Below, one piece after another: positions 49,755 through 55,746 of a DNA stretch of 64,000 nt. Position 1 is the stretch's first letter; each line of letters opens with the position of its first letter. The position numbers were made by a program, and so were the translations under genes. Origin of the DNA: Daucus carota subsp. sativus (lineage: Eukaryota; Streptophyta; Magnoliopsida; Apiales; Apiaceae); contig NC_030384.2 of the NCBI RefSeq assembly GCF_001625215.2, positions 25,718,527-25,782,526 on the forward strand. Reading direction: 5' to 3'. The notes under the pieces are model-generated. The model made no database searches, was not told the origin of the DNA, and saw only the letters and a list, made by a program, of their open reading frames with translations.

Positions 49755-49846
49755 GTTGAAACCCCATTCAAACTCACTCCACTCGCACAACATCCCCAAC
49801 ACTCATCCAAACCCTAGAATTCAATTCCAAAAAATGTCAGGAAGAG

Positions 49847-50093
49847 TGTTATGACTAGGGGTTTTACAGCTAAAATAATACAGCTAATAAGATAAAACTT
49901 GCAGAGAAAGAAAAACAAAGTAAGAGACAGAGCATATTCTCATTTCCAAGGATGATTCTACCCACTACAAGACTTGCCATTTATAGGCAGACAAGCTTAA
50001 CGGTAATAAAAAGACTGTCTCTACTAATCCATAAGCCCATTACATATGGCCCAAACCTTACTATCCCAATACTAGCCCAATCCAGACATGACA
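49847..50093 (-). repeat. 3' LTR of the chromovirus
   Basis: 247 bp. The purine tract AAGGGAAGGGATT (minus strand, about 50094-50106) borders it on the inside and serves as the polypurine tract; it overlaps the stop codon of gag-pol. Confidence 0.95.
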
Positions 50094-53000
50094 AATCCCT
50101 TCCCTTAAACTGATCCTTGTCCCCAAGGATCAAACTTTGGGAACTTCTTATGGATATCTTCCCATAATTCCCAGGTTGCTTCGTCTCTTCCACCATTTGT
50201 CCACTGTATCAGTACCCTTGTTGCAGGCCTGTTGCCTTTCTTCACCAGTTGCCTATCCAGCACAGCCACAGGTTCTATCTGCAATTCCCCTTCATCATTT
50301 ACTCCAGGCAGCTCTGTTTGTATCACCTTGCCCTTGCCTACTCTTTTCTTGAGTTGTGAGACGTGAAAAACATTATGCACTTTGGATCCTGCTGGCAGCT
50401 CCACTCGATAAGCTACATTTCCCACCCTTCTGCTGATCTTGTAGGGGCCATAGAATTTTGCAGACAACTTCTGGTTTCTCCTCAGTACCACAGATGCTTG
50501 CCGATACGGCTGGAGCTTTAAAAATACTTCATCCCCAACATTAAACTGTCTGTCAACTCGATGCTTATTGGCATACCACTGCATTCGTTCTTGAGCCTTC
50601 AATAAATTCTCCTTTAGCAGCTGTTGAATATGTACTCTGTCTTTCACAAACTGCTTCACTCCGGGGTTACTTACTCCTGCAGATTGGTATTGTATGGGTG
50701 GGGGTTCTTGATCATAAAGGGCCTTGAAAGGTGACATTCCAATGGCAGTGTGGTAGCAAGTATTGTACCATAATTCTGCCATGGGCAGCCATTGACTCCA
50801 CAAATGAGGTTTTTGCCCTGTTATGCAGCGTAGATACATTTCTAAACATTGGTTGACTCTTTCTGTTTGGCCATCCGTCTGAGGATGGTAAGCAGTGCTT
50901 ATGTTCAGCTTTGTTCCCATAGTGTTGAATAATTCCTTCCAAAAGGTACTGATGAAGACTGTATCTCTATCAGAAATGATGCATTTGGGAGGGCCATGTA
51001 GTTTAACCACAGTATCTAAGACCTTTTGAGCCACAATGACAGCTGTGTAGGGGTGACTAATGGCCACAAAATGTGCATATTTGGTCAGTTTGTCGACAAT
51101 GACCAAAATGACTTCTTTGCCAGCAGATTTTGGCAATCCTTCTATGAAGTCCAAGGATATAGTTTCCCAAGCATTATTGGGTATAGGCAGTGGCTGTAGC
51201 AAGCCTGGTGGTGAGGTATGTTCAGCCTTACATCTCTGGCACACATCACAGGCTCTAATGTACTCCTGTACCTCCAATTTGAGCTGTGGCCAATGGAATT
51301 TTTCCTGGATTCTCCTTGCAGTCACAGTGACTCCAGAATGGCCTCCTTCAGGGCTACTGTGAACATTTTCAATGATTTGCTTCCTCATCTGATTGCCATT
51401 CCCCACATACCATCTTCCTTCATACATTAAATCCCCATCTACCAATTTATACCCTTTTAATTCACTGTTCCCAGTCATCAACTTCACCAACATCTCTTGT
51501 GCAAACTGATCAGTTTCCCAACTATTCTTCAGTTCCTGTTTCCAGAGGGATATTACAGTGTGTAGAGCATTGCACTGTGCACCTTGATCATGGCATCTGG
51601 ATAGAGCATCAGCTACCAGATTATCCTTACCCTTCTTGTACACCACTGAGTAGTCATAGCCAAGTAGTTTTGACAACCATTTATGTTGGAGCAGAGTAGT
51701 GAGTTTCTGTTCCATGAGGTATTTTAAAGCCTCATGATCAGTTTTTATGATGAATTTGTGCCCAAGCAGATAATATCTCCACCTCTGGACTGCCATTATC
51801 ACAGCCATTAGTTCTTTTTCATAAGTTGATAAACTCATGTGTCTGGCAGCCAACACTTTGCTGAGAAAGGCAATGGGTTTCCCCTCCTGCATTAGGACAG
51901 CTCCTACTCCAGATTGGCATGCATCAGTCTCCAAAACAAAGGGTTTAGTAAAATCTGGCATGGCTAGAACAGGTGTTGTAGACATGGCTTCTTTGAGGGT
52001 ATTGAAAGCAAGTTCAGCCTCTTCACTCCACTGGAAAGCCCCTTTTTTGAGAAGCTGTGTTAGTGGCTTACTGATAAGCCCATAGTGTGCTACAAATCTT
52101 CTGTAGTAACCAGTCAATCCCAGAAAGCCTCTTAATGCTTTAATGTTCTTGGGTACTGGCCAGTCAACCATGGCCCTTATCTTCTCAGTATCAGCCTTCA
52201 CCCCTTCTGTAGTGATTACATGCCCCAAGTATTCTACACTGGCCTTGGCTATCTCACATTTAGACCTTTTAACAAATAAGGCATGCTTCCTTAACAGCTC
52301 TAAAACTGTTTTTAGATGCACCACATGCATGGCCATGGAGGGACTGTATACTAGTATATCATCAAAGAAGACCAGTACATAATCCCTGATCTGCTCTCCA
52401 AAAACCTTATTCATTAGACACTGAAAACTTGCTGGTGCATTTGTCAGCCCGAAGGGCATGACCATAAATTCATAATGCCCTTGGTGTGTTCGAAATGCCG
52501 TTTTGTGAATGTCCTCCGGCTGAACCCTTATTTGATGGTAACCACTTCTGAGGTCTAACTTAGTGAAGACAGAACTGCCTTTTAGCTCAGCCAAGAGCTC
52601 CTCAATGACAGGTATTGGAAACTGATTTTTAATAGTAATTGAGTTGAGGGCTCTATAATCAACACATAATCTCCATGTGTTGTCTTTCTTTTTGACTAAC
52701 AACACAGGAGAGGCATATGGGGAGCTGCTATGTCTCACAATCCCACTCTCTAGCATCTCCTTCACTATCTTTTCAATCTCACTTTTATGCACATAAGGGC
52801 ATTTGTAAGGATTGGAATTTACTGGGCTGCTATCACTCCTTAACGGTATCTTATGATCATGACTTCTTTGAGGAGGCAGACCTTTAGGTTCTGCAAAGAC
52901 ATCAGCAAACTCTTCCATTACTTCTTTGATTTCACTGGGCAAATTTTCCTGAGGTGGAGTCTCAGTCACTGCCATCACTTGGATTAGGAAACAACTATCC

Positions 53001-55180
53001 TCTTTGTGCACCCATTTACTCTTCTTTGTGTCTGGAACCACAGTCAAGTCACCCAACACTGCAGACTGTTCTAATTTGATCCTCCTTCCCTTCCAAAACA
53101 CCATAATGTTACTGTGTTGGAAATCAAAGATCACTGGACTCACTATCTTCATCCAGTTAACACCCAATATGACATCATACCCTCCTATTGGTAACAACAA
53201 CAAACTTGCTTCGAACCTTTCCCCAGCCATACTCCATTCAAACTTAGTCACCATTCTGTCACAATTGAGCTTTGCACCATTAGCAACTACCACGCTGACA
53301 GGAGTGCAGGGTTGTGTCTTTAAACCAAGAGCTTTTGCAGTAGCTGTAGACACAAAGTTGTGTGTGGAACCACTGTCTATCAGCATTCTTAATTTATGAT
53401 TCCCTTTCATGCCTTCTATACTCAAGGTGTGCAGTCCATCTGTGCCAGTTAATGCATGTATAGAAATTTCAGATTCTTGCTCCTCATTTTTGCCCTCTGC
53501 TCCTTGCTCATCTTCTTCCCAAATAATGGATAGTTCCCCTGTCTCATTATGCTGACTTCCAGTTTCCACCTCTTCTTCAGCAGTCACCATAAACAATTGC
53601 TTATTCCGGCAGTTATGCCCGGGTGTATACTTTTCATCACAATGTACACACAAGCCCTTGTTCATTCGATCTCTAAAATCCCCATAAGATAGCCTTCTTA
53701 CTGGCTTGGAATCTGGTTTACCTCCTTGGCTCGATTGCCCTTTGTACCTTTCACCATACCCAGAAGTATCCTTTCTAGGGGTGGAAACCACATTAGCAAG
53801 TGGCTTAATAGCAGGCTTAGCTCTCTTCTCCATAGCTTCCAGCACGCATTCTTGTGCTCGAGCTTTTTCTCTAGCATCTCTTAAGGAATGGGGTTTATGT
53901 AAATACAAGGTGCTGGAAATCTCATCCTTTAACCCACTTAAGAAGCTGTTTACAAAATATAATTCACTGAGGTTGGGGTTTTGAACCACAATGTGCTTTT
54001 TCAGCTCCTCAAACTGTGTGATATACTCATCTACTTTACCCTTCTGCATCAACTTGTTGAACTGCCCCTCCAAATTCTCATATCCCCCTCTTGTAAAGCG
54101 ATGACAGACTAATCGAGCAAAATCTGTCCACAACAAGTCATTCTGCTCTAATTGGACTGATTGATACCATGTGTCAGCCTCCCCATCCAGATGTAAAGCT
54201 GCGTATACCACCCTTTGTCTGTTGTCCAAGGAAGGGTTAAGTTGAAAAAACTTTTCACACTTGGAGATCCATCCCCTTGGGTCTTTACCCTCAAATCTGG
54301 GGAAATCAATTTTTGGAAACTTATAAGGGGTAAAACTTTGGTTGTGGTGGTTATAGGGTTGATGGTGCTGGTTTGGATGTGGTGGGTACAATGGTGGTGG
54401 GGGAAGATTCTGCTGGTATGGGTGTTGGTTGTTATGTGGTTGTTGAAAGTTGTTTTGGTATGGCTGCTGGATGTTGGGGTTAAATGTGGGATTTGTGTTG
54501 TGAGGAGGAGGGTTGTAATAGGGTGGTGGATAAGTGATAGCTTGGTGGGTGTATGGTGGTGGGTAACCAGTAGAGGTCATATGAGGTTGAGATACTGGAG
54601 GCCAAGGTCCAGAGTCAGTATTGTAGTTTAGGGATGATAGATACTGGTGTAATAAGGGAGGCAGAGTAGTCCCCATCACAGTTTGTGCATTTTGTGGTGT
54701 GTACTGACTGAAATTTAAATTAGGGTTTATAGGTGGAGTAGGCCTTACCTTGGGAGGTTGAAAGAACTGGTTGCCCTCAAAGGCGATAGAGTTGCCTCCT
54801 ACACTTGTTGGCCCAGCTTTGCTCACCACCTCCTCCCAGTTGTCATTGTAAGGACCAAACCCTGGAGGGTACCCTGTATTTTTAGCATGGACTGGTCTCT
54901 GTGTGTGGGTTGAAGAACCCATCTCTGGGGTTTCAGCTTGCTTCCCTTTGACAGTGCCCTTTAACAGATCCAACAACTCATTAAACCTTTTACCACTATC
55001 AGCATTGGCATTGGTCAGATGCTCCATCTGAGACTTGATTTCAGCCAATGACTCAATAGATCTATGATGCTCCTCTTCCAAAACAAGCTGCATCTGCTCA
55101 AAACGATTTTCTAAGGAACTGATGGAGTTTTCATGTTTCTGGAGGTTAGATTTAATGTTTTCAGCCATGGCCAAGGATGG

Positions 55181-55193
55181 GCTCTGATACCAC
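55181..55193 (-). promoter_or_regulatory. Primer binding site (initiator Met tRNA)
   Basis: TGGTATCAGAGCC on the minus strand, three bases inside the 5' LTR, is complementary to the 3' end of plant initiator methionine tRNA, the standard primer of this group. Confidence 0.9.
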
Positions 55194-55195
55194 TT

Positions 55196-55442
55196 TGTTA
55201 TGACTAGGGGTTTTACAGCTAAAATAATACAGCTAATAAGATAAAACTTGCAGAGAAAGAAAAACAAAGTAAGAGACAGAGCATATTCTCATTTCCAAGG
55301 ATGATTCTACCCACTACAAGACTTGCCATTTATAGGCAGACAAGCTTAACGGTAATAAAAAGACTGTCTCTACTAATCCATAAGCCCATTACATATGGCC
55401 CAAACCTTACTATCCCAATACTAGCCCAATCCAGACATGACA
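55196..55442 (-). repeat. 5' LTR of the chromovirus
   Basis: 247 bp, the same sequence as the 3' LTR as far as I can compare by eye. It is followed by AAGAG (55443-55447) and then H4 codons. Confidence 0.95.
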
Positions 55443-55746
55443 AAGAGGAAAGGGAGGCAAGGGACTGGGAAAGGGGGGAGCCAAGAGGCACCGCAAAGTG
55501 CTCCGTGACAACATCCAGGGGATCACCAAACCCGCCATTCGGAGATTGGCTCGAAGAGGTGGTGTCAAGCGAATAAGTGGATTGATTTATGAGGAGACCA
55601 GAGGCGTGCTGAAGATCTTTTTGGAGAATGTGATTCGCGATGCGGTGACTTATACGGAGCATGCCAGGAGGAAGACTGTCACGGCTATGGATGTTGTTTA
55701 TGCACTTAAGAGGCAGGGCAGGACTCTTTATGGTTTCGGAGGCTAA

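What the first reader, a model, noticed from the sequence alone, without database searches (positions are those of the whole stretch)
49834..55746. Fresh, apparently whole chromovirus inside the coding sequence of histone H4
The element lies after base 13 of an H4 reading frame, with a perfect AAGAG duplication. The two 247-bp LTRs look identical, gag-pol is one open frame, and the H4 flanks show no decay. This places the insertion very near the present and hints that the allele may be polymorphic or even private to the sequenced plant. The element has a chromodomain-like C-terminus, so landing in a histone gene invites the question of how its integration is steered.
Basis: partly seen in the sequence, partly recalled or inferred. 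Interest (0 to 1): 0.85.

Follow-up and report, generated by a model that had tools for sequence, protein, structure and literature searches.

The report
Young retrotransposon inside histone H4 gene
A complete jumping gene of a common plant type (a chromovirus, probably of the Reina clade) landed fairly recently inside one of about thirteen histone H4 genes and broke it, and the one close sister copy found in the same genome broke an F-box gene in the same way, which looks like a known tendency of this type to land in genes rather than something special about histones.

Summary
A 5,596-bp Ty3/gypsy element (49847-55442) with identical 247-bp LTRs and an AAGAG duplication sits after base 13 of an H4 coding sequence; without it the gene encodes an H4 identical to a PDB H4. 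gag-pol is one open frame ending in a group II chromodomain, which lacks two of three H3K9-methyl-reading residues. Size and motifs point to the Reina clade; no tree was possible. The insertion is recent (95% upper bounds 0.16-2.4 My by rate and method), but 'private to this plant' is untested. Twelve other near-full-length H4 matches exist; 7 of 7 checked are intact.

It too has identical LTRs and a perfect duplication, and interrupts a coding exon (F-box). Among the 9 nearest elements a third sits in an INTS3-like frame. The two family copies differ at 12.7% of synonymous sites under strong purifying selection, and no solo LTR or close relic was found, so the parent of each seems absent from the assembly. 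The family is nearly CpG-free. Landing in H4 fits LORE1-like genic integration (exon bias not significant here), not histone-specific steering.

The parts
49748..49753 (+). TATA box of the interrupted H4 gene, 86 bp upstream of the ATG
   Evidence: TATAAA by pattern; function inferred
49834..49846 (+). First 13 bp of the H4 coding sequence
49842..49846 (+). Target-site duplication AAGAG, left copy
49847..50093 (-). LTR, 247 bp (3' LTR in element sense)
   Evidence: genome search
50094..50106 (-). Polypurine tract (AAGGGAAGGGATT), overlapping the gag-pol stop codon
   Evidence: sequence; role by position
50105..55168 (-). gag-pol, one open frame of 1,687 codons plus stop
50135..50275 (-). Chromodomain (PF00385), group II type: cage W present, no aromatic upstream of it in the 71-aa piece, G at the third cage position
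50345..50536 (-). Integrase C-terminal SH3-like domain (PF24626) with GPY motif
50882..51163 (-). Integrase core (PF00665, 27.7 bits, below its 32.6 cut-off), D,D35E pattern present
51224..51394 (-). Integrase H2C2 zinc-binding domain (PF17921)
51656..51955 (-). RNase H (PF17917)
52214..52696 (-). Reverse transcriptase (PF00078), FFDD active-site motif
53129..53392 (-). Aspartic protease (PF08284), DSG motif
53609..53650 (-). Zinc-knuckle-like motif C-x2-C-x7-H-x-C
53834..54247 (-). Gag capsid region (PF19259, PF03732)
55181..55192 (-). Primer-binding site TGGTATCAGAGC, initiator tRNA-Met type (tRNA identity recalled), 3 nt from the 5' LTR
   Evidence: sequence
55196..55442 (-). LTR, 247 bp (5' LTR in element sense), identical to the other
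55443..55447 (+). Target-site duplication AAGAG, right copy
55448..55746 (+). Remaining 299 bp of the H4 coding sequence including the stop

Best explanation
It is a structurally complete, recently inserted chromovirus, probably of the Reina clade, that integrated by the ordinary LTR-retrotransposon route (tRNA-primed reverse transcription; a staggered 5-bp cut by its integrase). It interrupted one member of a redundant H4 gene family after base 13 of the coding sequence, in antisense, producing a predicted null allele (shown at sequence level). The insertion persists because other H4 genes remain (inferred). The family appears to integrate readily in genes and coding exons, as LORE1 does; H4 is one such exon, not a chosen target (inferred from the sister copy in an F-box exon, a cousin in an INTS3-like frame, and published LORE1 data). 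The CpG deficit must have been inherited from its source lineage, consistent with long CG methylation of the parents (inferred). Whether the copy could still move was not tested.
For: Identical LTRs, perfect duplication, restored H4. Pfam domains in chromovirus order in one open frame. Chromodomain class. 13 other H4 matches in the genome, 12 of them covering at least 296 of 304 bp; 7 of 7 fetched and translated encode an identical intact H4, the other 5 were not read. Sister copy on C1: LTR pair 0/247, duplication GCGAC, frame open in the three overlapping pieces read, inside an F-box coding frame whose 74% paralog is open across the site. dN/dS 0.06 between the two copies caps their mean insertion age at 0.34-1.78 My if every nonsynonymous change were post-insertion. 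LORE1 (Reina clade, group II chromodomain): 43 of 97 new insertions assumed genic, 31 of them predicted exonic (PMC2832683, section 11 read).
Against: Exon bias rests on few sites: 3 of the 9 nearest elements lie in a recognised coding frame (P 0.014-0.053 for an assumed coding fraction of 6-10%); leaving out the window, which was picked for its H4, it is 2 of 8 (P 0.08-0.19), or 2 of the 5 closest (P 0.03-0.08). The INTS3-like target is a duplicate that may already have been dispensable or non-functional. PMC2832683 itself reports no strong insertional preference for LORE1. Clade placement rests on size and motif, not on a tree. Only surviving insertions are seen.
Confidence: 0.82

Rival explanations
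1. The insertion is older than it looks, because the LTRs were homogenised by gene conversion.
For: Conversion between LTRs is possible in principle (recalled); LTRs are only 247 bp, so zero differences is a weak clock.
Against: The open 1,687-codon frame, unchanged H4 residues and dN 0.009 against the sister copy would not be expected after several My of neutral drift.
Confidence: 0.06
2. The chromodomain steers this family to histone genes or histone-gene chromatin specifically.
For: One copy lies in H4.
Against: The one sister copy found is in an F-box gene and the next clear coding-frame hit is INTS3-like; the chromodomain lacks two of three cage residues.
Confidence: 0.03
3. The two family copies arrived by horizontal transfer or introgression from a related plant carrying a diverse population of the element.
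For: Two fresh copies, dS 0.139 apart (5-11 My at 1.3e-8 to 6.5e-9), no solo LTR found, and no genome match between 81% and 96% identity to any of the four pieces searched.
Against: Low-frequency segregation with turnover in the host's own population predicts the same. PMC6317226 (passages seen) reads plant chromovirus evolution as mainly vertical. No other plant genome was searchable, and the search tool gives lower bounds.
Confidence: 0.2
4. The join is an assembly artefact.
For: No reads could be checked.
Against: Both halves meet at a perfect 5-bp duplication that restores an exact H4 frame, and the C1 copy has the same architecture at an unrelated site.
Confidence: 0.01

Closest known systems
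LORE1 of Lotus japonicus (Reina-clade chromovirus)
   Same: Single long ORF ending in a group II chromodomain; low copy number (ten preexisting copies estimated); frequently found in genic regions; some copies with identical 5' LTRs (PMC2832683: abstract and sections 4, 11 and 12 read, section 13 part 1 of 2).
   Different: LORE1 activity was observed directly; here it is inferred. Sequence identity to LORE1 was not measured (no reference sequence in the tools). Only two copies found here, with dS 0.139, whereas the LORE1 paper speaks of members that may share over 99% identity.
Bingo families of Beta vulgaris (Reina clade)
   Same: Total length 5.26-5.81 kb, short LTRs (293-503 bp), 5-bp duplication, tRNA-Met primer site, gag-pol in one ORF, group II chromodomain; in Bingo5 and Bingo6 the ORF ends upstream of the 3' LTR, as here (PMC3605345, sections 5 and 7 read).
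   Different: LTRs here are shorter (247 bp). Sequence similarity not tested.
Tekay, Galadriel and CRM chromoviruses
   Same: Chromovirus organisation (PMC3605345, sections 5 and 7 read).
   Different: In beet, Tekay are 8.4-11.6 kb with kb-scale LTRs, the one Galadriel element has 631-bp LTRs, and CRM has its chromodomain downstream of the polypurine tract. The Tekay motifs and the Galadriel motif described in PMC3350952 (passages seen) are absent here.

Membership tests
Plant chromovirus (Ty3/gypsy) | RT, RNase H, then integrase, with a chromodomain at the integrase C-terminus | tested here: met
   Pfam order on the minus strand; Chromo PF00385 32.8 bits against a 25.1 cut-off; the integrase core alone is below its cut-off (27.7 of 32.6 bits)
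Plant chromovirus (Ty3/gypsy) | LTRs TG...CA, 5-bp duplication, tRNA-Met-type primer site, polypurine tract at the 3' LTR | tested here: met
   (tRNA identity recalled)
Reina clade | About 5-6 kb with short LTRs, single ORF | tested here: met
   5,596 bp, 247-bp LTRs, shorter than the 293-503 bp in Table 1 of PMC3605345
Reina clade | Group II chromodomain upstream of the polypurine tract, without Tekay or Galadriel motifs | tested here: met
   the third-residue assignment uses the W-to-TWE spacing of HP1, recalled
Reina clade | RT/INT phylogeny groups with Reina reference elements | not testable with these tools
   No plant reference elements at hand; viral contigs and genome contigs gave no relative of the RT piece
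Exon-targeting element (LORE1-like) | Significant excess of new insertions in exons | tested here: inconclusive
   3 of 9 nearest elements in recognised coding frames, 2 of 8 without the window
Autonomous, currently active element | New insertions seen in progeny or polymorphism | not testable with these tools
   No reads, no other individuals

The most novel reading that the evidence does not exclude
A chromovirus family that carries a chromodomain yet preferentially breaks coding exons, and that survives not by accumulating copies but as a few young, short-lived insertions. Its lineages are millions of years apart and under strong purifying selection, and they leave no relics in the sequenced genome. 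They either circulate at low frequency in the population or arrive from other plants, and have shed nearly all CpG sites.
Probability: 0.3. Interest if true: 0.6.

Novelty: new member of a known kind. Interest (0 to 1): 0.4.

Why it matters
It is a clean, datable gene knockout by a complete plant retrotransposon, and a further example that a chromodomain without the methyl-lysine cage does not keep an element out of genes. The two-copy, no-relic, CpG-poor family is a tractable case for asking how low-copy retrotransposons persist: segregation in the population, or repeated arrival.

Tried and rejected
Relatives of the RT in viral contigs and genome contigs: none. AlphaFold of the C-terminal 150 aa: pLDDT 42, unusable, no fold search made. 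Rfam and tRNA scans of the window: nothing. PDB hit for the thaumatin ORF at E <= 1e-60, as a hint to the host: none; the host species was not identified. The empty-site frame at the C2 element (156 aa) gave no Pfam family (98 aa of it scanned) and no paralog beyond its own two halves (83 aa searched), so it is not counted as an exon. At the six of nine sites without a recognised exon, 7 of the 19 frames listed over the site were scanned with Pfam, two of them in part, without a hit (frames; scans); short exons or exons without a Pfam domain would be missed. Searches compared loci in the wrong orientation and are superseded; the first chromodomain motif scan was out of frame and is superseded. 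Literature: a search for papers holding all four terms on a retrotransposon in a plant histone H4 gene gave 0, and two looser searches listed none on the subject by title; three searches on CpG-poor LTR elements listed nothing directly on point by title and start of abstract. Gao et al. 2008, the source on chromodomain targeting, is not held; it is known here only through the papers that cite it.
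Full report
OBSERVATION. The window carries two identical 247-bp repeats at 49847-50093 and 55196-55442, flanked by AAGAG on both sides. Removing the insert and one AAGAG restores a 312-nt frame for a 103-residue H4 identical to PDB chain 8kcb_H. tblastn found no other H4 in the window. The element is 5,596 bp and lies antisense to H4. Reading from the H4 ATG gives MSGRVL and a stop; an in-frame TGA at the far LTR end precedes the rest of H4. The allele is therefore predicted null.

ANATOMY. gag-pol is one minus-strand frame of 1,687 codons. 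Scanned in pieces it shows capsid, aspartic protease, RT, RNase H, H2C2 zinc domain, integrase core (27.7 bits, below its cut-off of 32.6, but the D,D35E pattern is there), an SH3-like C-terminal domain and a chromodomain. A tRNA-Met-type primer site lies 3 nt from the 5' LTR, and the polypurine tract overlaps the stop codon (the tRNA assignment is recalled). The chromodomain keeps the cage tryptophan but has no aromatic residue before it in the 71-aa piece and a glycine three residues after it. By the definition in PMC3605345 (section 7 read) that is group II. PMC2832683 (section 13, part 1 of 2 read) states that group II domains do not bind H3K9-methyl but can still direct a fusion protein to heterochromatin.

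AGE. Zero LTR differences give a 95% upper age of 0.40-0.47 My at 1.5e-8 to 1.3e-8, 0.93 My at 6.5e-9 and 2.4 My at 2.5e-9 (rates recalled). With the intact frame and unchanged H4 residues the bounds fall to 0.16, 0.32 and 0.84 My at 1.3e-8, 6.5e-9 and 2.5e-9 (which assumes frameshifts at a tenth of the substitution rate). The LTR holds only one CpG, so it lacks hypermutable sites and these clocks may run slow (inference). The data cannot tell a generation from 100,000 years.

HOST GENE FAMILY. The assembly has 441 Mb in 11 contigs. The H4 query matches 14 places including the window; 12 of the 13 others cover at least 296 of 304 bp, at 82-97% identity. The 7 that were fetched all encode an identical intact H4, the nearest differing at 9 of 312 nt; the other 5 were not translated. 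The nearest paralog, 300 kb away on the same contig, has the site uninterrupted.

FAMILY IN THE GENOME. The LTR finds only three pairs: this copy, one on C1 and a 75% pair on C2; no solo LTR. RT, gag and 3'-end pieces agree: 100%, then 96-97% (C1), then 71-78% (C2); every other match is 76% or lower, save one 170-bp stretch at 81% on C2. The tool scores only its best candidates, so counts of distant relatives are lower bounds. The C1 copy (C1:55575293-55580879) has 0/247 differences between its own LTRs, 4/247 from the window copy, a perfect GCGAC duplication and, in three overlapping pieces, an open gag-pol frame. Its empty site restores a 443-codon stop-to-stop frame with an F-box domain that spans the site; a paralog 74% identical is open across the site. 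The C2 element is older and broken: 8/310 LTR differences, duplication GCAAA, stops in all three frames of the 3,869-bp piece. Over 3,870 internal bp the window and C1 copies differ at 134 positions with no gap: dS 0.139, dN 0.009, ratio 0.06. So the two lineages were kept functional long after they split (5-11 My at 1.3e-8 to 6.5e-9), both copies are young, and neither can be the direct parent of the other. The parents seem to be missing from the assembly. LTRs differ at 4 of 247 sites where 31 would be expected at the synonymous rate, so the LTR is constrained or was exchanged between lineages; against the overall internal rate (8.6 expected) the shortfall is not significant (P 0.07).

SITE CHOICE. 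I examined the 9 best of 43 RT matches. All 9 have paired LTRs and a 5-bp duplication; for the six of L054-L059 the duplication was sought within 6-12 bp of the BLAST ends, next to TG...CA. Whether the frames of those six are open was not tested. LTR differences, in the order window, C1, C2, C3 (L054), C9 (L055), C4 (L056), C7 (L057), C3 (L058), C7 (L059): 0/247, 0/247, 8/310, 1/309, 1/246, 5/302, 0/332, 0/278, 3/332 (the last six from BLAST alignments). Three of 9 sites are in recognised coding frames: H4, F-box, and an INTS3-like frame (Pfam E 2.2e-37) with an open 96% paralog on C9; that target is a duplicate and may not have been a working gene. All three elements are antisense to the gene. 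The other six gave no Pfam domain in the frames scanned, 7 of 19 listed. At assumed coding fractions of 6-10%, 3 of 9 has P 0.014-0.053; leaving out the window, which was picked for its H4, 2 of 8 has P 0.08-0.19 and 2 of the 5 closest P 0.03-0.08. That is suggestive at most. For LORE1, 43 of 97 new insertions were assumed genic and 31 of these predicted exonic, though the authors saw no strong preference (PMC2832683, section 11 read). Later collections are reported as 55-76% genic, and Fukai et al. 2012 has 'exon-targeting' in its title (PMC10796720, section 17 and reference passage read; the 2012 paper itself not seen). Landing in an exon is thus ordinary for the clade.

CpG. The element has 31 CG in 5,596 bp, observed/expected 0.12, against 0.61 in the rest of the window. 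With protein and codon usage held, CG is 29 against 99 expected (z -10.9), while CAG+CTG is 218 against 184 expected: only CG is lost. Four host frames in the window show weaker CG avoidance (z -0.8 to -5.5). Internal pieces: window copy 0.14, C1 0.12, C2 0.22, the six other relatives 0.30-0.47; their host flanks are mostly 0.48-1.28, but one 4-kb flank (L051, beside C2) is as low as 0.16, and the lowest of 115 half-kb windows outside the element is 0.15. In a fresh insertion this deficit must be inherited. CG methylation of the parental copies with deamination is the likeliest cause; selection against CG is not excluded.

VERDICT. The claim of a private allele is untested, and the hint of histone-related steering is not supported. 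The two-copy, no-relic pattern deserves follow-up in related genomes.

Noticed in passing
window 49847-55442; C1 copy L016: Near-absence of CpG in a fresh element (observed/expected 0.12-0.14) without loss of CAG/CTG sites; lowest among the 9 related elements examined.
   Followed up: partly
C1:55575293-55580879 (L011, L012, L016, L046, L049, L050): Sister copy with identical LTRs and GCGAC duplication inside an F-box coding exon; dS 0.139 from the window copy; parents of both apparently missing from the assembly.
   Followed up: yes
C9:29585144-29590694 (L055): Related element with 1/246 LTR differences inside an INTS3-like frame; an open INTS3-like paralog lies about 88 kb away and several fragments with stops lie elsewhere on C9.
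   Followed up: partly
L002 (C4:26073714-26077017): H4 paralog whose similarity to the window gene starts at the ATG and runs into the 3' UTR (93.8% over 467 bp), with a different upstream region that ends in what looks like a 3' splice site.
   Followed up: no
window 47099-48795: Possible remains of a PIF/Harbinger-type transposon (NAM-associated match below its cut-off, Plant_tran match just above; family name recalled), 1-3 kb upstream of the H4 gene.
   Followed up: no
window 34712-35562: Tandem array with a 67-bp unit (higher-order periods 133 and 267) lying between the members of two diverged direct-repeat pairs (32286-32479 with 36173-36366, 32539-32652 with 37328-37441).
   Followed up: no
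window 56225-56281: Perfect 28-bp tandem duplication about 0.5 kb downstream of H4.
   Followed up: no
window 20279-20674: hAT transposase dimerisation-domain fragment on the minus strand.
   Followed up: no
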